Shown piece after piece: positions 5,744 through 19,125 of a stretch of 64,000 nucleotides of DNA. Below the pieces are notes generated by a model. That model made no database searches. It had not been told where the DNA came from and worked only from the letters and a program-made list of their open reading frames with translations. Origin of the DNA: Pseudanabaena sp. ABRG5-3. GTDB lineage: Bacteria > Cyanobacteriota > Cyanobacteriia > Pseudanabaenales > Pseudanabaenaceae. Every line of letters begins with the position of its first letter. Position 1 is the first letter of the stretch. The position numbers and the translations under genes were made by a program. Where the stretch lies: NCBI RefSeq assembly GCF_003967015.1, contig NZ_AP017560.1, positions 1,302,001 through 1,366,000 on the forward strand, read 5' to 3'.

Positions 5744-7228
5744 ATGGATGTTTTATTAGAAAAACTGCATGATGTCTTCACCGCCCAAGTTTTAGACATT
5801 GGAGGAACTAAGTTTTCGATCGCCTCGATCGCCATTTTGCTAGGACTGCTTGTCTTAGCATTTTTTGTATCAAAACTAATTAGTGAAACTCTCAGGCGAT
5901 CGCTACTTAGAAAACTGCGGATCAATCGGGGATTACAGGAAGCCATTACTGTATTTATCAAATACTTACTGATTACCCTTAGCTGCACAATTATTTTACA
6001 AACGGCTGGTGTTAACCTCAGTTCTTTAGCCGTAATTGCGGGAGTCATCGGGATCGGAATTGGCTTTGGGCTCCAAAATCTTTCCAGTAATTTTATCAGT
6101 GGCGTAGTATTACTATTTGAGCAAACTCTCAAGGTTGGCGATTATATTGAAATTGGCGAGCTGAAAGGTACTATCGAAAAAATATCGATTCGCTCCACAA
6201 TTCTCCGTACCGATGACGACTTATTCGTAATCGTTCCCAATCAACGGCTAATCGAACACAATACCGTTAACTGGAGCTATGCAGGACATACTTGTCGCAT
6301 CCATATTCCAATTACCGTAGCGATAGATACCGATCTACTAGTTTTAACAGAAGCATTACTCACCGCATCTCGCCACGAACCCCATGTATTACAGTCACCA
6401 CCGTCAGAAGTCCGATTTCTCAAGTTTAACCGTGATGCCCTCGAATTTGAACTATTAGTCTGGATCGATCATCCTGACAACCACGAAGCCATCCGTAGTT
6501 CGCTTAACTTTCGGATTGCCTACGAAATCCGCGAAAGAGGTATTCAGATTCCGTTACCAACTAGAGAAATCGTAATTCGCAACCCTGAATTAATTCACGA
6601 TACTATTTCTCCCAATCTTCCTAGTAACCCCAAATTAAGACTCATACCCAATCAATCAAAAATAGTAGCTAAGAACTCTATTGATTCATCTCCATCTACT
6701 GGGATCAATACAAGAAGTCTCCATGATTTATTGCGAAAAATATCTTACTTTGAACGCTGTACGGAAGTAGAACTATTTGCCTTAATCGCAAGGGGATATC
6801 GCAAACAATTTGATATTAGTGAAGTTATTTGCCAAGAAAATGACCCCAGCGAAGAGTTTTATATTATTTTGTCTGGAGCCGTAGAAGTTTTCTCAGAGCG
6901 GAATAATCAGGCGATCGCTACATTAGGCGAGGGAGAGTTTTTTGGTGAAATTGCCTTATTAACTGGTACACCTCGAACAGCCAGTGTTCGCGCCTTATCC
7001 TCGGATACAGTTCTGTTTGTAGTCGAACGTCAGCAATTACAAAAACTCCTCAGTGAACATAAGGAGTTAGGTGAACAAATCGCGTTGAAATTATCAGAGC
7101 GGCAACAGATTTTGATTAGTCTCGGCTTACTAAACGAAGAAGAATTGCAAAGATCGCAACATGCCGCACTGTCATGGGTACGCGATCGCCTCAATGCTAT
7201 CTTTGGAATTAATCTAGGCAAGAGCTAA
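5744..7228 (+). CDS. MscS-family mechanosensitive channel with C-terminal cyclic-nucleotide-binding domain
   Basis: 494 residues. N-terminal hydrophobic segments (FSIASIAILLGLLVLAFFV, FIKYLLITLSCTIILQTAGV), then the MscS pore helix and beta domain (GVIGIGIGFGLQNLSSNF, TLKVGDYIEIG, VPNQRLIEHNTVNWS). Residues about 335-455 form a cyclic-nucleotide-binding domain: FYIILSGAVEVF, GEGEFFGEIALLTGTPRTAS has the phosphate-binding-cassette pattern. This matches the bacterial cyclic-nucleotide-gated MscS-like group, which responds mainly to cyclic nucleotide and weakly to tension. A cyclase with CHASE2 is encoded at 21512-23506. The last 40 residues are a helical extension of unknown role. Confidence 0.9.
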   Translation: MDVLLEKLHDVFTAQVLDIGGTKFSIASIAILLGLLVLAFFVSKLISETLRRSLLRKLRINRGLQEAITVFIKYLLITLSCTIILQTAGVNLSSLAVIAGVIGIGIGFGLQNLSSNFISGVVLLFEQTLKVGDYIEIGELKGTIEKISIRSTILRTDDDLFVIVPNQRLIEHNTVNWSYAGHTCRIHIPITVAIDTDLLVLTEALLTASRHEPHVLQSPPSEVRFLKFNRDALEFELLVWIDHPDNHEAIRSSLNFRIAYEIRERGIQIPLPTREIVIRNPELIHDTISPNLPSNPKLRLIPNQSKIVAKNSIDSSPSTGINTRSLHDLLRKISYFERCTEVELFALIARGYRKQFDISEVICQENDPSEEFYIILSGAVEVFSERNNQAIATLGEGEFFGEIALLTGTPRTASVRALSSDTVLFVVERQQLQKLLSEHKELGEQIALKLSERQQILISLGLLNEEELQRSQHAALSWVRDRLNAIFGINLGKS

Positions 7229-7345: not shown

Positions 7346-9082
7346 TTACAAAATACTTTGAGCATGTATCAATGCCGTTGCCGCAGTTACATCCACTGGG
7401 CGAGAGTACAGAAATCCTTGCCCATAGTCACAGAAAAGATCTTTCAAGATTAGAGTATGTGATTCTGTTTGAATGCCTTCCGCTACTACTTTTAGTTTTA
7501 ACTGTTTTGCGAGATTGATAATCATTGAGGTAATCTCAAGATTATTTGAATTGACATCAATATCTTTTACAAAAGCACGATCAATTTTTAGGGTTGTGAT
7601 CGGGAGCGATTGGAGATAGGCAAGAGAGGAGTATCCTGTGCCAAAATCATCAATTGATAGCCCAATAGATCTTTGTCGTAGTTGAGAGAGTACATCAATG
7701 GCAGTTTCCTTATTTTCCATTAATACACTCTCCGTAATTTCTAAAGTTAAGTTTTCTCCCTGCAATTCAGCAAAACTTAAATTACGATCAATATCATCTA
7801 AGAGTATTGGGTCAACTAATTGCAAACTGGATAGATTGACACTAATGCTGGTAGGGTAAATCTCAGGAAACATCTTTTTCCACTTGCCCATTTGTGTACA
7901 TGCCTCCGATAGGATCAACCGCCCTAGAGGAATGATTAAACCTGTTTCTTCGGCAAGTGGAATAAATTCTAAGGGTGAGATTAGTTTTTGGGTTGGAGTG
8001 ATCCATCTTGCTAAAGCTTCAAAACTATTAATCTTTCCTGTAGCTAAGGAAATAATAGGCTGATAATATATCTGTATTTGGTGAGTCTCGATCGCCTCTT
8101 GCAAACTGACTTCGAGATTTACTCGATGTACCGCCTTTTGCTGCATACTAGACTTAAAGAATACTGTGCGATTTTTAGCATGTCTTGCATGGTCGATCGC
8201 TGTATCAGCAGCCCTTAAAAAATCTTCTGGCTGACTATATTCTAAGTCACTGGTTACTACGCCTATATGGATTTTCGATGAAACATTGATTTCTTCAAAT
8301 TGAATGGGAAGTTGGAAAAGATGATGCAGTTGTTGAATGTAATTATCAACACACGATAAATCAACCTTGCGGATCAATAGAGCAAACTCATTATTTTCCA
8401 GTCTGGCTACGACTTTAGAGGGAATCTCCAAGTTGTTTAACCGATGAGCAACTTTAACTAAAAGGAGATCGCTAAGAGCATGACCAAATCCAGATTTAAT
8501 AATGGAGTAACGCTCGACATCTAGCTTTAATATTACAAAAGAACTTCCTTTTACATGCTTATCTTCGATGCTGTGAGCAATCTCTTGCAGTAATCCATAG
8601 CGATTAATTAATCCTGTAAGTTGGTCGTAAAATACAAGGCTATGTAGGCGATCTAAAGTTGATTGCAATTGTTGCTTTTGTTCTCTTAATTCTTGAACAC
8701 AAGCTAGAGTTTTGCTAATTGTAATCTCTAGGTCTGCAAAATCAAACGGCTTATTCAAGAAATCAAAAGCGCCACGATTCATTGCCGCCCGAATATTTCT
8801 CATATCCCCAAAGGCTGAAATCACCACTGCTTTGAGAGGATAATCAAACTCTGCCAAGTTTGCTAATAAAGTTAATCCATCCATTTCTGGCATCTGGATG
8901 TCCGTCAAAACCATATCGATCTCATTGCTCTCTCGTAGAATCTGTAATGCTTCTACTCCATTTTGGGCAAACCGAAAATCAATGTTTCCATCGCGAATTT
9001 TTTTTCTAAAGATTTGTTTAAAAAGACGCTGGATCTCAAACTCATCATCAACTACTAAAACTATGGGTGTCTCTTCTTTCAT
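7346..9082 (-). CDS. Response regulator with degenerate GGDEF and EAL domains
   Basis: 578 residues: receiver domain at about 1-125 (VLVVDDEFE, MVLTDIQMPEMDGL with phospho-acceptor Asp, NKPFDF), GGDEF domain at about 145-300, and EAL domain at about 320-575. The GGDEF signature reads LENNEF, so diguanylate cyclase activity is unlikely; the domain may bind GTP or only regulate. The EAL domain keeps FEALARWI, the metal-site stretch DDFGTGYSSLAYL, LKIDRAFVKDI and VAEGIQTESH, so c-di-GMP phosphodiesterase activity is plausible. No cognate kinase is fused or directly adjacent; the hybrid kinase gene at 9301-14703 lies upstream on the same strand, 218 bp away, beyond its own terminator. Confidence 0.93.
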   Translation of the reverse strand: MKEETPIVLVVDDEFEIQRLFKQIFRKKIRDGNIDFRFAQNGVEALQILRESNEIDMVLTDIQMPEMDGLTLLANLAEFDYPLKAVVISAFGDMRNIRAAMNRGAFDFLNKPFDFADLEITISKTLACVQELREQKQQLQSTLDRLHSLVFYDQLTGLINRYGLLQEIAHSIEDKHVKGSSFVILKLDVERYSIIKSGFGHALSDLLLVKVAHRLNNLEIPSKVVARLENNEFALLIRKVDLSCVDNYIQQLHHLFQLPIQFEEINVSSKIHIGVVTSDLEYSQPEDFLRAADTAIDHARHAKNRTVFFKSSMQQKAVHRVNLEVSLQEAIETHQIQIYYQPIISLATGKINSFEALARWITPTQKLISPLEFIPLAEETGLIIPLGRLILSEACTQMGKWKKMFPEIYPTSISVNLSSLQLVDPILLDDIDRNLSFAELQGENLTLEITESVLMENKETAIDVLSQLRQRSIGLSIDDFGTGYSSLAYLQSLPITTLKIDRAFVKDIDVNSNNLEITSMIINLAKQLKLKVVAEGIQTESHTLILKDLFCDYGQGFLYSRPVDVTAATALIHAQSIL

Positions 9083-9249: not shown

Positions 9250-9302
9250 AAGTAGTAAAACCTGTGGTGCAAGCGCAGGGTGCGCTATAGGTTTTACTAC
9301 TT
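9250..9302 (-). terminator. Hairpin at the end of the hybrid kinase gene
   Basis: AAGTAGTAAAACCT at 9250-9263 pairs with AGGTTTTACTACTT at 9289-9302 around a 25-base loop. The right arm overlaps the stop codon of the kinase gene. Confidence 0.5.
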
Positions 9303-12300
9303 AGCTATGTCTATAAGGTATGGCAATAATTATTTCGGTAAATCGGTCAGAGTTCAATACATTCGTATTAATAGTCAAGTTTCCCTTATGTTGTTTGACA
9401 ATAATATCATGAGTGAGTGAAAGCCCTAATCCAGTACCCTCTCCTGCGGGTTTAGTCGTAAAAAATGGGTCTAAGACTTTCGATTGAAGCTCTGGGGCAA
9501 TGCCACAGCCATTATCTCTAATCCGAATTTCAACGCGATCGCCAAGATCGTTAGTTGAGAGATGAAGTGTAGGCTGATACTTTGCTACTTGATCGGGATC
9601 AGTCTTAAGCTGATTTTGGCAGAAGCGCATCGCATCACAAGCATTATCAATAATATTAATAAAGGCGCGGCTCATAGATACTGTCACCACATCAACTAAG
9701 TCTAGCCCAGTATCATAGGCAGTTTGAATCGTCATATTAAAGCCACTATCCTTAGTTTTTTTGCTGTGATATACCAGTTTTAATGACTTCTCAAGTAAGG
9801 CATTAATTTGGGTTGGCTGAAAGTTAACCTGTCCACCATCAGTACGAGTATGTTGCATCATGCTTTCGATGATATTCTCAGCTCTTTGACTATGGGCAAG
9901 AATTGTGATGTCATTTTCTTGGAGATCGGCGATCAATTCTTGGATCAGATCTGATGTATCTGCATCTAAGGCAGGAAGTAATGGCTGTATGATTTCTAGT
10001 AGTTCTTGATTAAGTTCGATGGAACTTCTTGCATAATTTAAGACAAAGTTGAGGGGGTTACGCAGTTCGTGAGCAATACCTGCGGTAAGTGTCCCAAGGG
10101 AAGCAAGCTTTTCTTGGGCGATAATTTGTTGCTGAGCCGCCTTGAGATCAGCAGTGCGTTGTTCAACTTTCTGCTCCAAGGTTTGAGAATAGTCCGCAAG
10201 TTTGCTATTAGCTGTTTCTAAGTATGCGTAAAGTTGAGCATTTTGGATCGAAATCGCTGCTTGTGAACAGAGGAAATTTAGTACCTCAAGGCGATCGCGC
10301 GTAAATGCTCCCACGGTCAGATTATTCTCCAGATATAAAATCCCCAGCAGTTTGCCTTGCTGCAAAATAGGACTGCAAAGGATACTTTTTGATTGATTTT
10401 GCTGGATATAGAGATCATTTGCCCATTGAGATTTTTGGGCATTGACTAAGACGGCTGGATACAAACTTCGTTTGACTTTATTCAGAACGCTCATTGCCAT
10501 ATCTTGACTTAGCTCTGGAGATATCGGTGGGCTAAAGACTTGAGGTTGTTGTCCTGATTCTATTCTTGCCGCAATCTGCAACTCCTTTTCTACTTGCAGC
10601 AACAAAATACATTTATCTGCTCCAGCATTAGCAATGATAATTGTGAGTAGGGTTTCCAAAAGCTTACTGAGTTCAATTTCTCCAGAGATCGCTTGCGAAG
10701 CTTTGAGAAGAGTTGCGAGATCGAGGGATTCGGAGCCACTAATAGAAAAATTGCTGGCAAGGGGCTTAGAAAAAGGAGACGTTTTTTTCTGGGGAATAGG
10801 AATTAAAAATTGTGAATAAAGCTTTTCTAAATCAGCGACCTTAGCAGTTGCGCCCCAACGACCATAGCAATAATAGGCTTCCATCATATAAACTTGTCCC
10901 ATTTTTTCATTTCCCCTTGCAAGGTAGAACCTAGCAGCAAGCTCGTTGGCAATAGCTTCATCCTGAATAAAACCGTTTGCCTTAGCTTCAGCGATCACCC
11001 GATCATAAAATTCAGATGCTTGGCTCGATTTTTTCAACACTCGTAGACGCTCAGCTTCCACTAGTAAAAGCTTGTGCTTAAAATTCATCGGAGCTGATTT
11101 TGCTAATATAGAAAGATGTTTGCAGTCCTTCTTTACTTTTGATAGACAGGCTTTTTTTTCTCTTGTAGTTAGATCGTTATATTGCGCCAATCGTATTAAC
11201 GCATCATAAAAATAGAAGACATACTGAGCAAACGTTCCATTAATTACATCCATTCCTGTCTCAATGATTGCAATCTGCTCCATAGCGAATGGATAACGAT
11301 GAAATAAGAAAGATAAGAATAATTTTGTAAAGCTGGTATAAATCTGTAGTGGTCGATCTTCCTCAGAAATTGTAGTTGCGTCAAAAAAACGACCTACTAA
11401 TTCACAAATGTCGCTGTTATTTGTGGTGGTCAGATTGTCTATACATTGGCAATTAAGATCATGGAGGTTTGCCATCAAACGATGTTGGAGTTTCTTAAAA
11501 ACTGGACGATTGGCGATCGCGGCTCGCTGCAAATCTACTAAATTTTTGCCAGCTAAGTAGGACTGAAAAAAGTAGACACATAGGTTATAAGCAGCATATT
11601 CAACATCCCCCACCTCCAGACTCATCTGATAGGCTTCTAATAATATTGGTAAATTATCGCTTAGGGATTCCTTACGATAGGCTATAAAACGACTCCAGAT
11701 AAATAGTGTAGAACCTATGGCGATCTTAGATGAGTTTTGGTGGCATAGGGCGATCGCCACTTTTCCCATAGCATATCCAGCATCGATCCGCCCTAGTTTC
11801 TCGCAAAGTAGATAAGCATAGATCGTATATGCCATCGAAGATTTCGGGATATTGCCATAACGCAAGTATAGAGAAATGCCAATAAATGTAATAAATGGAA
11901 GTATCTCTGGCATACTGGTTTGAGCTGCCGCACCGATGACATTAAAGAGGTTACAGATCACCAATTTGTGAGAATTGGTCATGGCAGGTAATGTCAGTAA
12001 ATCTTTATGAGTTCTGACTGACATCCGATAGACAGTAATCAAAAAGCCGACGATAGTTCTGAGACCAAATAGATTATTGGGAAGAGCAACACCAAATTTG
12101 AGCAAAACTTTACGGGCATATTTGACGGCATCTTGGTAGTGGTTTTGAGCAGTCAAAGCCAGAATTTGGGTTTCATAAAACTTGGCACAGTCCAAATGAT
12201 TTTGGACATTCTGTAACCCGATCTCAATGAGGTTTGACATTTGGGCATAATCACCACAGAGATAGTTGACCTCGGCTGCCAATTGATAGATTTCTAAGCT

Positions 12301-14703
12301 GAGGCTGTACTGCTCTTGCCAGCACTGAGACGACAGAAACTGTAAACCAAAATCGAGATAGTTTATGGCAACGGCATAGGCTGAAGATCTCTTTGCCTTT
12401 TCTGCCGCTAGCAAATTGAGATGAACCATCTGCTCTCTTTCCCTTGAATCATGAATGAGATTAGCTCCGCGATTAAGGTGATTGACTATAGTAAAGATAT
12501 GTAGCTCTCGCTCATCAATAGGTATGTGATCTAGTAGCAACCACCCAACCCGCAAGTGTACTGATTCTTTTTGGGAGTCGGGAATGAGTGAGTAGGCTGC
12601 TTGCTGTACACGATCATGGAGAAAGCTATAAGTACAGGATTGCGAATTTTGCTGCCATAACTCTAAATCTTGTTCGCTACTAAATCCTGACTCCGATTGA
12701 AAAAATTTGTAGTTTTGATCAAGGGGAAGGATCAACCCATCCTTTAAGGCACTCCATAATATTGTTGCTGTCTCTAGTGGCGATCGCTCAGACACGATCG
12801 CCAGTGTATTCAGGTCAAATTGGTTGCCAATACAAGCTCCTAATTTAATTAGTTCTTGAGTCTCGATCGGTAACTTTTGCAATTTCCGTACCATCAACTC
12901 CACCACATTATCGCTGTAGATAAAGGCGATTTGCACAAAATCCCATTGCCAATGGCGTGCTTCCCAGTCAAATGTAATTAGCCCATCCTCATATAGGGTC
13001 TTCAGAAACTGACTAGTAAAGAACGGATTTCCTTGTGTTCTTGGGTATATACATTCGGTCAAAAGTTGAGCTTGCACTAGATCACAGAGCATTGTGTCTG
13101 CTACTAACTGATTAATATCTTTCTCCCGCAAAGGATTGAGGGTGATCACATTCACAGTTGCTCCAGACTTCGCGATCTCCTCCACTGCTAAAACCATTGG
13201 ATGGGCAGCCGCGACTTCATTATCGCGATAGGCTCCCAAAACTAACAGATGCCCTTTGTCCTGCATCAATAGTTTTAACAATTTTAATGATGCTGCATCT
13301 GCCCACTGTAAATCATCTAGAAAAATCACGAGGGGATGATTAGCAATGGTAAATATTTCTACAAAGCTCTGAATTAATCGATTGAAACGATTTTGAGCAG
13401 CATTCCCAGATAGCTCTAAAACTGGAGGTTGAGTACCAATAATGTACTCTAGTTCGGGAATCACCTCGATCAAAACCTGTCCATTTTCACCAAGCACTCC
13501 CAGAATTTGCTTTTTCCAAGCTTGCATTTGCGCGTCGGACTCAGCAAGTAACTGCCCTATCAAATCGCGGAAAGCTTGTACAAATCCGAAAAAAGGAATA
13601 TCCCCCTGAAGCTGATCGTATTTACCCTTAATAAAATATCCGCGCTGTCTGATAATTGGTTTCTGTACTTCGTTGATTACTGCGGTTTTACCAATCCCAG
13701 AAAAGCCCGCAACCAGCATCATTTCGGTATTCCCATTACTCACACGCTCGAAAGCAGAGAGGATATTAGTAACTTCCATCTCTCTACCATATAATTTGTT
13801 AGGAATGAGAAAGCGATCAATATTGTCTTGCTGACCTAGTTCAAACAGTTTATTTGTTCCTTCTCTTAGACATTTTTCCAAATCATTCTTGATTCCTAGG
13901 GCATTTTGATAGCGCTCCTCAGCATTTTTTGCCATCAGCTTATCCACAATATTCGATATAATTTGGGGTACTTCTGGATTTCTCTGATATGCAGGAATTG
14001 GTGATTTTGCTAGATGACAATGCACCAGTTCCATCGGATCGTCAGAGACAAAGGGCAACTCTCCTGTCAATAGTTCGTAAAGTGTTACTCCAAGGGAATA
14101 AAAGTCACTACGGTAATCAATAAAGCGATTCATTCGCCCAGTTTGCTCGGGTGAGATGTAAGGCAATGTCTCCTCACGATTATGCGTACTCTGAATCTCT
14201 TGTTTTTCGTTGATGAGTAATGAGGCGCTACTAAAATCTATCAGTTTGACTTGTTTAGTATCAGGATTGATCAGAATGTTATCTGGCTTAATATTTTTAT
14301 GAATGATTTGATATTTATAGAGTCCATCTAATGCTTCGGTTATTTGTATAGCAGTCTTGAGAAAGCCATTCAACATTCGAGATGTGTTGACAAATGGACT
14401 CTCTCGTTTCAATAATTCTCGTAGGGAAATACCACCGAAGTCTTCCATGACGATCGCATAGACATTTTTATAGGGTTCTAGCGCCAACATTTTGACGATG
14501 TTGGGCAGATCGATATTTTGGGCGATCTTATACTGGTTGCGGAAGTTAACTAGTTCCTTGAATTGAGGTAAAGGATTTCGTAAGAGTTTAATTACAACTG
14601 GATAGTTGTCACTATCACGAACTCCCCGATATATCAAAGACCGTGAACCTACATAGATTTGCTCTAAGATTTCATAACCTAGTAGGTGAGGAATATTATT
14701 CAT
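9301..14703 (-). CDS. Giant hybrid: Ser/Thr kinase-like, AAA ATPase, GAF, histidine kinase
   Basis: 1800 residues. Order: protein-kinase-like domain (about 1-275), an ATPase module of the AAA_16/predictor type (Walker A GFSGIGKT near 330, LVIFLDDLQWADAASL), a long helical TPR-like region (about 700-1270), a GAF domain (about 1330-1480, LLEILYLENNL-type core), a coiled coil, and a histidine kinase (LGTLTAGIAHELRNP, GNGCGIAPE-like N/G1 box, GEGTGLGLSL). The family is common in filamentous cyanobacteria and fungi-like hybrid kinases. The catalytic loop of the kinase domain reads IIHKNIKPDN (HKN, N137) instead of HxD, so its phosphotransfer is doubtful. It likely senses a small molecule through GAF and signals through the histidine kinase to an unlinked regulator. 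Confidence 0.9.
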   Translation of the reverse strand: MNNIPHLLGYEILEQIYVGSRSLIYRGVRDSDNYPVVIKLLRNPLPQFKELVNFRNQYKIAQNIDLPNIVKMLALEPYKNVYAIVMEDFGGISLRELLKRESPFVNTSRMLNGFLKTAIQITEALDGLYKYQIIHKNIKPDNILINPDTKQVKLIDFSSASLLINEKQEIQSTHNREETLPYISPEQTGRMNRFIDYRSDFYSLGVTLYELLTGELPFVSDDPMELVHCHLAKSPIPAYQRNPEVPQIISNIVDKLMAKNAEERYQNALGIKNDLEKCLREGTNKLFELGQQDNIDRFLIPNKLYGREMEVTNILSAFERVSNGNTEMMLVAGFSGIGKTAVINEVQKPIIRQRGYFIKGKYDQLQGDIPFFGFVQAFRDLIGQLLAESDAQMQAWKKQILGVLGENGQVLIEVIPELEYIIGTQPPVLELSGNAAQNRFNRLIQSFVEIFTIANHPLVIFLDDLQWADAASLKLLKLLMQDKGHLLVLGAYRDNEVAAAHPMVLAVEEIAKSGATVNVITLNPLREKDINQLVADTMLCDLVQAQLLTECIYPRTQGNPFFTSQFLKTLYEDGLITFDWEARHWQWDFVQIAFIYSDNVVELMVRKLQKLPIETQELIKLGACIGNQFDLNTLAIVSERSPLETATILWSALKDGLILPLDQNYKFFQSESGFSSEQDLELWQQNSQSCTYSFLHDRVQQAAYSLIPDSQKESVHLRVGWLLLDHIPIDERELHIFTIVNHLNRGANLIHDSREREQMVHLNLLAAEKAKRSSAYAVAINYLDFGLQFLSSQCWQEQYSLSLEIYQLAAEVNYLCGDYAQMSNLIEIGLQNVQNHLDCAKFYETQILALTAQNHYQDAVKYARKVLLKFGVALPNNLFGLRTIVGFLITVYRMSVRTHKDLLTLPAMTNSHKLVICNLFNVIGAAAQTSMPEILPFITFIGISLYLRYGNIPKSSMAYTIYAYLLCEKLGRIDAGYAMGKVAIALCHQNSSKIAIGSTLFIWSRFIAYRKESLSDNLPILLEAYQMSLEVGDVEYAAYNLCVYFFQSYLAGKNLVDLQRAAIANRPVFKKLQHRLMANLHDLNCQCIDNLTTTNNSDICELVGRFFDATTISEEDRPLQIYTSFTKLFLSFLFHRYPFAMEQIAIIETGMDVINGTFAQYVFYFYDALIRLAQYNDLTTREKKACLSKVKKDCKHLSILAKSAPMNFKHKLLLVEAERLRVLKKSSQASEFYDRVIAEAKANGFIQDEAIANELAARFYLARGNEKMGQVYMMEAYYCYGRWGATAKVADLEKLYSQFLIPIPQKKTSPFSKPLASNFSISGSESLDLATLLKASQAISGEIELSKLLETLLTIIIANAGADKCILLLQVEKELQIAARIESGQQPQVFSPPISPELSQDMAMSVLNKVKRSLYPAVLVNAQKSQWANDLYIQQNQSKSILCSPILQQGKLLGILYLENNLTVGAFTRDRLEVLNFLCSQAAISIQNAQLYAYLETANSKLADYSQTLEQKVEQRTADLKAAQQQIIAQEKLASLGTLTAGIAHELRNPLNFVLNYARSSIELNQELLEIIQPLLPALDADTSDLIQELIADLQENDITILAHSQRAENIIESMMQHTRTDGGQVNFQPTQINALLEKSLKLVYHSKKTKDSGFNMTIQTAYDTGLDLVDVVTVSMSRAFINIIDNACDAMRFCQNQLKTDPDQVAKYQPTLHLSTNDLGDRVEIRIRDNGCGIAPELQSKVLDPFFTTKPAGEGTGLGLSLTHDIIVKQHKGNLTINTNVLNSDRFTEIIIAIPYRHS

Positions 14704-16272: not shown

Positions 16273-19125
16273 TTATTGAGCTTGTAATTTTGCCTCGATC
16301 GCTTTGGTAATCCGATCACTTGCCTCTTCGAGATGGGCTTTGGTGTAAGTGTCGAGTTTGTCACTGCGATCGCGTAAAACATTGGCAAGGCGATCGCGCA
16401 GTTGGCGGAGTTGATACCATGCTAGGGTTCTAGCATCTTCGGGTGGATTGATCGTGCGGATACCAACGACCAGATCTAAAAAGTTATCGATCTTATCCAT
16501 GCTGAACCGATTGCGTAACGCCAGATTGACCAACAAATTCATATGTTGACGCTGAAGCGATCGGCGCAAACTAGAGATTTGGGTGAGATCATTCGTGGGG
16601 GCAAGAATTTCTGTCCAAATCCCTTGCTGTAAATTCTCAAATAGTTCAGGCAGGGTGAGGGCCTCACCAGCATTGGTTTTGAGTTCTGTATCACGCAATC
16701 TTTGCAAACGATCTGAAGAGAGTAAATCGCTTAAGACAAAAGTTTGTAAGGATAAAATGCGGCGGTGAATTGGATAATCGAGAGAAAACTCATCGGGAGA
16801 ATCGCCCCAATGATTCCAACGTGATGGAGCTAATTTATTGAGTAAATTTGGTGAAAAGGTCAGGGCCTCTGCTGCAAACAGATTTTTTTGAATAGCGGCC
16901 AGTGCTTCTCTCTGTTTAGTCACGGGCAGTGGTTCAAAGGGCAATCTCCCAATGGCATCACCAGAGCGATAACGATTAAAAGCTTGACCACCAACATAGG
17001 GAACTAGTGAATAGAGATTAGCGGCGTAATATCTAAAAACTTGATTGAACGCAGTTTTTGTATCATCAAAACTCGCACCTTGTCCGGGGTAGCGTTTTTC
17101 GATGCGATTCCACATCACCCGCGCATTATCAAACTGCCACTGAGCATAGGTAACTAGATCATTGCTCAAATCGTGGGCTTGGGTAAGGGGATCGAGTCCC
17201 GCAGATTCATCCTCATCAGTGGCATAGGCGAGTTCTGGCTTGGCAGCAAGACTGGCAATTTTGGCTAATTCTTTCAGTTCCCCCGAAGGCACGATCGCAT
17301 TGATGGGAGTATAGCCATAGGCGATCGCCCATTCATCATAGGCTCCGACTTTGCTCGTAAAGAATTCACCTTGCTTTGCTCCCTGTGGGGCTAGGTTTAC
17401 GCCATTGTAGTCCATGACCGAGGCTGACAAACCTCTTTTGCGGGTGATTTCAGGATTATTTAGTTCATCGGGAGAGAGCATCCCACTACCATGAAAATTA
17501 TGCCGTAAACCGAGGGTATGACCGACTTCATGGGCAGTTACTTCACGCACAAATTGGTTGATATATTCCTTCATGCGATCGCTACTGGGCAACACATTAT
17601 CAAAGAGGGATAGAGACATTGCTCCTAATTTAAACTGAGCCACTGCCTCCATGCCATAGCATAGGTCACTGGCACTAGACATAAATAGATTGTCATTGCG
17701 GACTGGAGAATCTGTAGATATGGCGATCGCCTGTTTTTTGAGAATGGCAAGCTTGTCATACTGCAACCGACGAGCATTCATGCCATAACTACATAAATGG
17801 GAATCTCCCGTTAAAAGCGAGAGAAAAGGCATATTTTGCCAATGATTTTGTTGAGCAATATTGCCATAATCCTGTTTGATTGCGCGAATCAAATTACTAT
17901 CGATGATAATATCGGCATCCAAAATTTGACCCGTGAGCGGATTTACCCGTGATGGACCCATCGCAAAGAAGGCATCTACAGAATTAAACCAGCGAATCGT
18001 GTTATAGCGGATATCGGCAGGGTTCCAATCAGCGCGATCGGGCATCTGTTTGACGACGATCGCATCTTTAAATCCAATTTTTTCAAAGGCCCTATTCCAC
18101 ATCAATGCGCCTTCTCTCACGGCCCTCCGATATTCTAGGGGAACTGTATTCTCAATCCAAAAGGTGATCGGCTGTTTTGGTGGAGAAATTGGCTCATTAG
18201 GATTTTGCTTTTCTAGATGCCAACGATTGATATAGCGCACAAAGGGCGTTTTCGCAGATTTCTTGGATAGATCTTGGTAGGCGGTGACAAAATAGCCAAC
18301 ACGCTCATCGGCAAGGCGAGGACGATAGGCATTTTGATAGGGGAGTTGCGAAAAGCTATAGCGAACTTTGAGGGTAAAGGCATTGCTATCAGGTACAGTA
18401 GTGAGGTCGGGAAGGCTGAAGTCTGATTTTGGTAATGTCGTTCCTGTAAAGCCAAATACAGATTCTATTTCAATGTTTTGAGGAAATGTCTGAGCATTGC
18501 TGAGATAGGATTTGCTAGGATCTGCCATAAAAGGCGCACCAAGTCGATTAGATAGCGTTTTATTTAAGTTGGTTAAAGTATCACTCAAGATTAGAGGATC
18601 GATATCAATTAATAGAGATTTGCTTTTAGGATGAATACTATGGATCGGTAGCGATATCAAAATGGAATCGCTAAAGGATTGGCTGAGCGATCGCTCCTGT
18701 GGATCGCCCATTTGTGTACGAAAGTTGGTATTAGGAATGACAAATTGTAAATTGTTCTTCAGTCGCCGAAAGTTGAACATCAAATCATTGAGAGGAATAC
18801 CACGATAAATACCGCGCTCGCCCAGTCCTGATTCAAGGGTCATTACTGCCAAAAAATTGCGATCAAGTTGATCGGGTCTAATTTCTGCTAAGACCTTACC
18901 TGTTTCTAGATGACGGTAAAGAGTGAATAGTCCTTGTAACTTTTCGTGGTCTTTGATAGCTTCATCAAAGGGTTGAAGTTCGGGCTGTCCTTGATTAGGT
19001 GCAGGCACATTCGTGATCTGAGGAACCTGTGCTGCAACGGGAGAAAGTCTTTCGAGTAATGGTTGAAAAATCAGAATAAGTAAAAAACTGAGGCAAATGA
19101 CTATCCAAAATCGAACTTTCTTCAT
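16273..19125 (-). CDS. Zinc-dependent metalloprotease (DUF5117/DUF4953-type)
   Basis: 950 residues. An N-terminal hydrophobic signal (FWIVICLSFLLILIFQPLL) directs export. The catalytic zinc motif is TAHEVGHTLGLRHNF (HExxHxxGxxH, metzincin-like), with SVMDYNGVN downstream as the likely Met-turn. The N-terminal region contains the GLFTLYRHLETGKVLAEIRP and FLAVMTLESGLGERGIYRG stretches typical of the DUF5117/DUF5118 proteins. The C-terminal 250 residues are helical. The physiological substrate is unknown; a periplasmic or extracellular protease is expected. A three-fold 10-bp repeat lies just upstream. Confidence 0.9.
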   Translation of the reverse strand: MKKVRFWIVICLSFLLILIFQPLLERLSPVAAQVPQITNVPAPNQGQPELQPFDEAIKDHEKLQGLFTLYRHLETGKVLAEIRPDQLDRNFLAVMTLESGLGERGIYRGIPLNDLMFNFRRLKNNLQFVIPNTNFRTQMGDPQERSLSQSFSDSILISLPIHSIHPKSKSLLIDIDPLILSDTLTNLNKTLSNRLGAPFMADPSKSYLSNAQTFPQNIEIESVFGFTGTTLPKSDFSLPDLTTVPDSNAFTLKVRYSFSQLPYQNAYRPRLADERVGYFVTAYQDLSKKSAKTPFVRYINRWHLEKQNPNEPISPPKQPITFWIENTVPLEYRRAVREGALMWNRAFEKIGFKDAIVVKQMPDRADWNPADIRYNTIRWFNSVDAFFAMGPSRVNPLTGQILDADIIIDSNLIRAIKQDYGNIAQQNHWQNMPFLSLLTGDSHLCSYGMNARRLQYDKLAILKKQAIAISTDSPVRNDNLFMSSASDLCYGMEAVAQFKLGAMSLSLFDNVLPSSDRMKEYINQFVREVTAHEVGHTLGLRHNFHGSGMLSPDELNNPEITRKRGLSASVMDYNGVNLAPQGAKQGEFFTSKVGAYDEWAIAYGYTPINAIVPSGELKELAKIASLAAKPELAYATDEDESAGLDPLTQAHDLSNDLVTYAQWQFDNARVMWNRIEKRYPGQGASFDDTKTAFNQVFRYYAANLYSLVPYVGGQAFNRYRSGDAIGRLPFEPLPVTKQREALAAIQKNLFAAEALTFSPNLLNKLAPSRWNHWGDSPDEFSLDYPIHRRILSLQTFVLSDLLSSDRLQRLRDTELKTNAGEALTLPELFENLQQGIWTEILAPTNDLTQISSLRRSLQRQHMNLLVNLALRNRFSMDKIDNFLDLVVGIRTINPPEDARTLAWYQLRQLRDRLANVLRDRSDKLDTYTKAHLEEASDRITKAIEAKLQAQ

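What the first reader, a model, noticed from the sequence alone, without database searches (positions are those of the whole stretch)
14287..14304. Hybrid kinase lacks the catalytic Asp of its Ser/Thr kinase domain
The catalytic loop reads HKNIKPDN; residue 137 is Asn (codon AAT on the minus strand at 14293-14295) where active kinases have Asp. Other core elements (VVIKLL lysine, LIDFSS) remain. The domain may now be a pseudokinase that gates the ATPase, GAF and histidine kinase parts.
Basis: partly seen in the sequence, partly recalled or inferred. Interest (0 to 1): 0.5.

Follow-up and report, generated by a model that had tools for sequence, protein, structure and literature searches.

The report
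Cyanobacterial sensor with likely dead kinase
A large cyanobacterial sensor protein has lost the key catalytic residue of its built-in Ser/Thr kinase while its other signalling parts look intact; relatives have lost the same residue many times over, so it is probably a pseudokinase of a kind already described, not a new type of system.

Summary
Confirmed: in the 1800-aa minus-strand ORF 9301-14703, residue 137 of the N-terminal Ser/Thr-kinase domain is Asn (HKNIKPDN, codon AAT) where the catalytic Asp belongs. The protein is an HstK-type "dual kinase" (kinase, AAA_16, GAF, histidine kinase) of a cyanobacterium, probably Pseudanabaena. Its same-genus ortholog shares the histidine kinase (70%) and the downstream REC-GGDEF-EAL gene but keeps Asp (GAT). 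In 355 family domains (deliberately enriched for Asn by motif searches) 329 keep Asp and 26 do not (24 Asn), about 19 changes of state on a tree. Asp-less domains more often carry further active-site lesions (13 of 26 against 13 of 329), though a relatedness-aware test is not significant. Here the alphaC Glu is Gln and DFG is DFS (both usual in its clade), and Gly178 is Glu (rare). Beta3 Lys, catalytic-loop Asn and DFG Asp remain: the HER3/JAK2-JH2 pattern. Most likely the domain binds nucleotide, phosphorylates weakly or not at all, and regulates a sensor that signals to a c-di-GMP phosphodiesterase. Gating itself is untested. The family (cbSTKIII; apparently CP1) is in print with pseudokinase members: a new member of a known kind.

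The parts
9301..14703 (-). HstK-type dual kinase gene, 1800 aa
13906..14676 (-). Ser/Thr protein kinase domain (Pfam Pkinase, residues 10-266); predicted kinase fold, pLDDT 87.8, pTM 0.87, best PDB match PknB
14293..14295 (-). Asn137 (AAT) in place of the catalytic-loop Asp
14533..14535 (-). Gln57 in place of the alphaC Glu (usual in this clade)
14587..14589 (-). Lys39, beta3 lysine, kept
14278..14280 (-). Asn142, metal-binding Asn of the catalytic loop, kept
14230..14238 (-). DFS (residues 156-158): metal-binding Asp kept, Gly is Ser (usual in this clade)
14170..14172 (-). Glu178 in place of the activation-segment Gly before Thr179; in the 355-domain set Glu here occurs only in this protein and L261, both Asn137
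13240..13797 (-). AAA_16 ATPase domain (303-488), Walker A SGIGKT and Walker B FLDDLQW present
10246..10671 (-). GAF domain (1345-1486)
9988..10098 (-). HisKA dimerisation/phosphoacceptor stretch (1536-1572), H box AHELRNPL (Pfam match below the curated cut-off, 22.6 against 26.9 bits)
9313..9675 (-). HATPase_c domain (1677-1797), N, G1, F and G2 boxes present
7346..9082 (-). Downstream gene: receiver, GGDEF (motif reads ENNEF), EAL; candidate output partner, also downstream of the ortholog

Best explanation
The kinase domain is a pseudokinase or near-pseudokinase: it probably still binds ATP through Lys39, Asn142 and Asp156 but has lost useful phosphotransfer. It serves as a non-catalytic N-terminal regulatory or docking module of an HstK-type sensor whose AAA, GAF and histidine-kinase parts remain functional. 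The histidine kinase most likely phosphorylates the receiver domain encoded just downstream, controlling a c-di-GMP phosphodiesterase (EAL). Shown: residue states, motifs present in the other domains, gene pairing kept in the one ortholog found, repeated loss in the family. Inferred: ATP binding, lack of catalysis, regulatory role, partner and output.
For: Asn137 and Glu178 at sites otherwise nearly invariant. Kinase-domain identity to the ortholog (67%) is as high as that of AAA (65%) and HK (70%), far above the middle region (36%), and third-position changes dominate (0.55 against 0.24 and 0.16), so the domain has been under constraint. Predicted fold intact. Family-wide, loss of Asp takes about 19 changes of state on a FastTree tree, and three Asn pairs are 88-92% identical across genomes, so some Asp-less lines last. 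The 26 Asp-less domains have more lesions at Lys39 or Asp156 (4 of 26 against 3 of 329, p=0.0007), Gly178 (4 of 26 against 1 of 329) and Thr179 (9 of 26 against 10 of 329, p=8e-7), but none at P185, E186, D200, G205 or R264 (0 of 26 each). HER3 lacks the same two residues (alphaC Glu, catalytic Asp), binds ATP at about 1 uM and activates partners allosterically (PMC4718504 section 11). The ortholog shares HK (70%) and downstream REC 75%, GGDEF 70%, EAL 76%.
Against: The change cannot be dated: conservation since the split could have accrued while Asp was present. The ortholog keeps Asp, so the gene pair does not need the loss. Relative-rate counts give this lineage about twice the ortholog's private changes in the kinase (more for all 12 outgroups, p<0.05 for 10; the outgroups are not independent); AAA also has more for all 12 (p<0.05 for 5), GAF is mixed; on conserved columns the kinase contrast is 16:7, p=0.09. 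Fisher tests ignore relatedness: the independent-pair sign test has median p=0.125. Sites 178 and 179 were picked after seeing them. Missing alphaC Glu does not go with missing Asp: 10 of 26 Asp-less against 198 of 329 Asp-bearing domains lack it, though the Asp-bearing set leans to the window's own clade. AlphaFold does not report catalytic competence.
Confidence: 0.55

Rival explanations
1. Vestigial domain: catalysis was dispensable, Asp was lost recently and neutrally, and the domain is drifting with no regulatory role left.
For: In the first set of 297 domains (two of its seven Asp-less rows found by motif) the seven losses were seven separate changes; this lineage's kinase domain is somewhat accelerated; Asp-less domains gather further active-site lesions.
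Against: The five fold residues named are unchanged in all 26 Asp-less domains, and identity to the ortholog matches AAA and HK; three Asn pairs persist at 88-92% identity.
Confidence: 0.25
2. Weakly active kinase: Asn137 slows but does not abolish phosphotransfer, as reported for HER3 and JAK2 JH2, and the weak activity is used in cis on the long protein.
For: Lys39, Asn142, Asp156 and Thr179 are all kept; reviews report weak activity for HER3 and JAK2 JH2 with Asn.
Against: Gln57 and Glu178 are further departures; relatives without Asp have lesions at Lys39, Asp156 or Thr179 more often than Asp-bearing ones.
Confidence: 0.15
3. Assembly or sequencing error of one base (GAT read as AAT).
For: One transition separates it from the ortholog's GAT; reads are not available here.
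Against: The genome is rated 99.81% complete in 8 contigs; the same domain carries G178E and L176R at near-invariant sites; Asn here recurs in 23 other distinct family domains.
Confidence: 0.05

Closest known systems
cyanobacterial STK family III (cbSTKIII, 'dual protein kinases', HstK/Alr2258 type), PMC2176072
   Same: N-terminal Ser/Thr kinase, GAF, C-terminal histidine kinase; Gln for the alphaC Glu (27 sequences) and Ser for the DFG Gly (30 proteins) already reported in 2007
   Different: that survey calls all cbSTKIII members 'KD' kinases, so Asp present; this member has Asn
CP1 bacterial pseudokinase family (COG3899-linked), PMC12599244
   Same: kinase-like domain fused to a predicted ATPase, GAF/PAS partners, mainly cyanobacteria and proteobacteria, about 40% classed as pseudokinases; a listed Leptospira member reads VLIK / Hkslcpgn / DFS
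   Different: membership by that paper's own sequence profile was not tested; no cyanobacterial example with HKN is named in the passages seen
HER3 and JAK JH2 pseudokinases, PMC4718504
   Same: Asn for the catalytic Asp, alphaC Glu missing, beta3 Lys, catalytic-loop Asn and DFG Asp kept (HER3 section read; JH2 passages)
   Different: eukaryotic tyrosine-kinase group; likeness of residue pattern, not membership
Fungal Chk1/Mak2/Mak3 hybrid histidine kinases, PMC9069115, PMC5383687 (passages)
   Same: Chk1: Ser/Thr kinase, AAA-16, GAF, histidine kinase in that order; removal of kinase plus AAA from Candida Chk1 resembled the full deletion in one mucosal model
   Different: fungal, with a C-terminal receiver; state of its catalytic Asp not checked here
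Mycobacterium PknB
   Same: best structural and sequence match for the kinase domain (1mru_B: Z 30.7, rmsd 2.1, 262 aligned, 32% identity)
   Different: an active PASTA kinase (recalled) with HRD, alphaC Glu and DFG (alignment)

Membership tests
cbSTKIII / HstK-type dual kinase | N-terminal STK, at least one GAF, C-terminal histidine-kinase domains in one protein | tested here: met
   the HisKA match is below Pfam's cut-off (22.6 against 26.9 bits), HATPase_c well above
cbSTKIII / HstK-type dual kinase | KD motif (Lys-Asp in the catalytic loop) | tested here: not met
   HKN here. Of 355 relatives 329 have the Asp and 26 lack it. PMC2176072 defines family III by domain structure (passages) and reports KD as shared by its members, so I treat KD as usual, not defining
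CP1 pseudokinase | physical link to a COG3899 predicted ATPase | tested here: inconclusive
   AAA_16 follows the kinase; COG3899 itself was not searched
[quoted passage not shown]
   HKN, DFS; PMC12599244 section 10
CP1 pseudokinase | CP1-specific residue constraints | not tested
   profile not available here
CP1 pseudokinase | no transmembrane region | not tested
   no prediction run
Pseudokinase (functional sense) | no or negligible phosphotransfer in vitro | not testable with these tools
   needs an assay
Active Hanks-type Ser/Thr kinase | catalytic-loop Asp | tested here: not met
Active Hanks-type Ser/Thr kinase | alphaC Glu pairing with beta3 Lys | tested here: not met
   Gln57
Active Hanks-type Ser/Thr kinase | beta3 Lys, catalytic-loop Asn, DFG Asp | tested here: met

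The most novel reading that the evidence does not exclude
Glu178, in the activation segment next to the Thr that in PKA contacts the catalytic Asp (recalled), supplies a carboxylate near the lost one, so the kinase keeps activity with a relocated acidic residue, somewhat as WNK kinases relocated their lysine (recalled). Glu at 178 is seen in two of the 24 Asn137 domains (this one and L261) and in none of the 329 Asp-bearing ones.
Probability: 0.05. Interest if true: 0.65.

Novelty: new member of a known kind. Interest (0 to 1): 0.33.

Why it matters
The cyanobacterial dual kinases are numerous and their Ser/Thr-kinase part is named as a kinase. Loss of the Asp many times over (about 19 changes of state on the tree), with further active-site lesions and the named fold residues unchanged, suggests that in part of the family the kinase fold is used without catalysis. 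The ortholog pair (Asp in one species, Asn in the other, same histidine kinase, same downstream gene) is a natural experiment for asking whether catalysis matters to the sensor.

Tried and rejected
Compensatory carboxylate (Glu178): first looked striking (2 of 5 Asn domains against 0 of 292 others), but among 24 Asn domains the residue is Gly 20, Glu 2, Ser 1, Ala 1, which fits relaxation better; in L261 the Glu may be a swap of neighbouring E and G. Kept only as the novel case.

Domain-specific decay of this kinase: the protein departs from near-invariant columns in several domains (kinase 7 of 83, AAA 8 of 110, middle 3 of 57, GAF 1 of 20, HK 9 of 40), so excess decay of the kinase alone is not shown. 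Clustering of its changes in the active site is not significant (p=0.39 at the 95% cut, 0.47 at the 90% cut).

Link between Asp loss and position 158 inside the Gln57 clade (3 of 4 against 6 of 168) rests on four Asp-less rows and was not pursued.

Gating by the kinase domain: no computation here tests it.

Frequency: I did not sum the per-genome Asp counts; I give genomes only (206 of 388 with the Asp pattern; 7 of 388 with the Asn pattern, one of them, L366, not a kinase). Of 59 places, 30 were made loci and the other 29 were not looked at; three of the 30 are family members, one being the window itself. Of 24 places, 21 are family members. In one search two hits were dropped as short or interrupted and 29 as duplicates. 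The per-domain tests used 91 full-length relatives plus the window protein, those with a complete ORF of at least 1300 aa. In one search Lys39 alone is not significant (1 of 26 against 0 of 328, p=0.07), and Phe157 is weakly so (3 of 26 against 8 of 329, p=0.04).

Literature: HstK's own paper is not held. No assay of an Asn-bearing member was seen in the listings of searches; that is absence from those listings only. (fungal group X kinases) and one search gave nothing of use; led to the pseudokinase reviews, to the fungal papers.

Full report
What is there. The minus-strand ORF 9301-14703 encodes 1800 aa with Pkinase 10-266, AAA_16 303-488, GAF 1345-1486, a HisKA stretch 1536-1572 (below Pfam's cut-off) and HATPase_c 1677-1797. 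Residue 137 is AAT, Asn, in HKNIKPDN. Aligned to PknB, it sits at the Asp of HRD; Gln57 sits at the alphaC Glu and Glu178 at the Gly of the GT motif. The genome is a cyanobacterium: its same-genus genome G004 has a contig (C285, 26191 bases) that matches NZ_LIRE01000708.1 of Pseudanabaena sp. 'Roaring Creek' (L071, 26191 bases) in length, and L031 and L071 give the same kinase scores and motifs, so the genus is inferred to be Pseudanabaena.

The ortholog. The closest kinase domain (65%, L028, in L342 of a genome of the same genus) belongs to a protein whose histidine kinase is 70% identical, while the other rows printed reach 34% at most; the gene downstream is the same receiver-GGDEF-EAL protein (75, 70 and 76% for the three domains). 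That ortholog reads HKDIKP with GAT and keeps Gly178. So, taking Asp as the older state, the loss happened in this lineage after the split. The own genome holds three further members of this family, all HKD.

How common is the loss. In a first set, drawn by similarity plus two found by motif, Asp is kept in 290 of 297 distinct domains (five Asn, one Ala, one Gly); the two found by motif (L136, L159) are among the five Asn. Searching for the Asn motif directly gave 7 of 388 class genomes and 24 of 291 genomes of the order of G208; the matching Asp motif was in 206 of 388 class genomes (those matches were not all checked for kinship). Of the 27 loci are family members with Asn, the window's own among them. 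In the combined set of 355 distinct domains, enriched for Asn by design, 329 have Asp and 26 do not (24 Asn), with about 19 changes of state on a FastTree tree. The program warns of long branches that meet, so the number is approximate, and such counts cannot tell gain from loss.

What goes with the loss. Of the 26, 13 have a lesion at Lys39, Asp156, Gly178 or Thr179, against 13 of 329 with Asp, and 1 of 39 in Asp-bearing controls taken from the listing (40 regions fetched kept). For Lys39 and Asp156, the sites that matter a priori, it is 4 of 26 against 3 of 329 (p=0.0007). Thr179 is changed in 9 of 26 against 10 of 329. In PKA the matching Thr contacts the catalytic Asp (recalled), so its loss after the Asp is expected if catalysis no longer matters. 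Of the 15 sites looked at, P185, E186, D200, G205 and R264, among others, are changed in none of the 26. The tests treat rows as independent; on 12 independent pairs the lesion goes the same way as the loss in 4.2 and the other way in 0.1 on average, but the sign test has median p=0.125 because few pairs differ. Against a simple story of joint decay, absence of the alphaC Glu does not go with absence of the Asp (10 of 26 against 198 of 329), though the Asp-bearing set leans to the Gln57 clade. Three Asn pairs are 88-92% identical between genomes, so the state can last.

This protein. It keeps Lys39, Asn142, Asp156 and Thr179. Gln57 with Ser158 is the commonest combination (163 of 297 domains). 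Its rare changes at near-invariant sites include L176R and G178E. Glu178 recurs only in L261, also Asn137. Identity to the ortholog is 67% in the kinase, 65% in AAA, 70% in HK, 36% in the middle region and 46% in GAF, with codon positions 1, 2 and 3 changed in 0.24, 0.16 and 0.55 of kinase codons: constraint since the split, though perhaps mostly before the Asp was lost. Relative-rate counts give this lineage more private changes than the ortholog in the kinase for all 12 outgroups (p<0.05 for 10) and in AAA for all 12 (p<0.05 for 5); on conserved columns 16 to 7 (p=0.09) and 21 to 14 (p=0.31). The kinase model is confident (pLDDT 87.8, pTM 0.87) and matches PknB best (Z 30.7, rmsd 2.1 over 262 residues), with low confidence at 168-175 and 190-193 in the activation segment.

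How it probably works. Beta3 Lys, catalytic-loop Asn and DFG Asp kept, with alphaC Glu and catalytic Asp missing, is the pattern of HER3 and of the JAK JH2 domains, for which one-cation nucleotide binding is described; HER3 activates its partners allosterically (PMC4718504, section 11 read, JH2 passages). [quoted passage not shown] I infer that the domain binds ATP and acts as a non-catalytic regulatory or docking part of the sensor. Walker motifs and the H, N, G1, F and G2 boxes (labels recalled) are present. The downstream gene, kept with the ortholog, has Response_reg, GGDEF and EAL domains; by eye its receiver and EAL signatures look intact and its GGDEF signature reads ENNEF. I infer phosphotransfer to it and control of c-di-GMP breakdown.

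What is known. PMC2176072 (section 6 and passages) describes cbSTKIII dual kinases, Gln for Glu in 27 sequences and Ser for Gly in 30 proteins, calls all of them KD kinases, and notes five cyanobacterial STKs without the Asp, of which SpkE showed no activity. PMC12599244 (section 10 and passages) describes the COG3899-linked CP1 family, about 40% pseudokinases. So pseudokinases of this make-up are known; a new instance, the ortholog contrast and the count of losses are the addition. I made no search on whether such a count is in print.

Noticed in passing
7346-9082 (-): Receiver-GGDEF-EAL gene with ENNEF in place of the GGDEF signature and EAL signature present by eye, 218 bases downstream of the dual kinase, kept in the ortholog's locus L342.
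   Followed up: partly
L363, L375; L364, L379; L381, L382: Three pairs of Asn-bearing family members, 88-92% identical between genomes: lasting Asp-less lineages in other cyanobacteria.
   Followed up: partly
L369; L367, L370, L376: More degraded relatives: L369 has Glu for the beta3 Lys as well as Asn137; L367, L370 and L376 have lost the DFG Asp.
   Followed up: partly
L342: The ortholog is longer (2293 aa): extra sequence lies before the histidine kinase (domains not searched), so the sensor part differs while kinase, AAA and HK are kept.
   Followed up: no
5744-7228 (+): MscS-type channel with a cyclic-nucleotide-binding domain, convergent with the receiver-GGDEF-EAL gene.
   Followed up: no
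16273-19125 (-): Met-zincin (DUF4953/DUF5117) protein of 950 aa upstream of the dual kinase, with two small ORFs without Pfam match between them.
   Followed up: no
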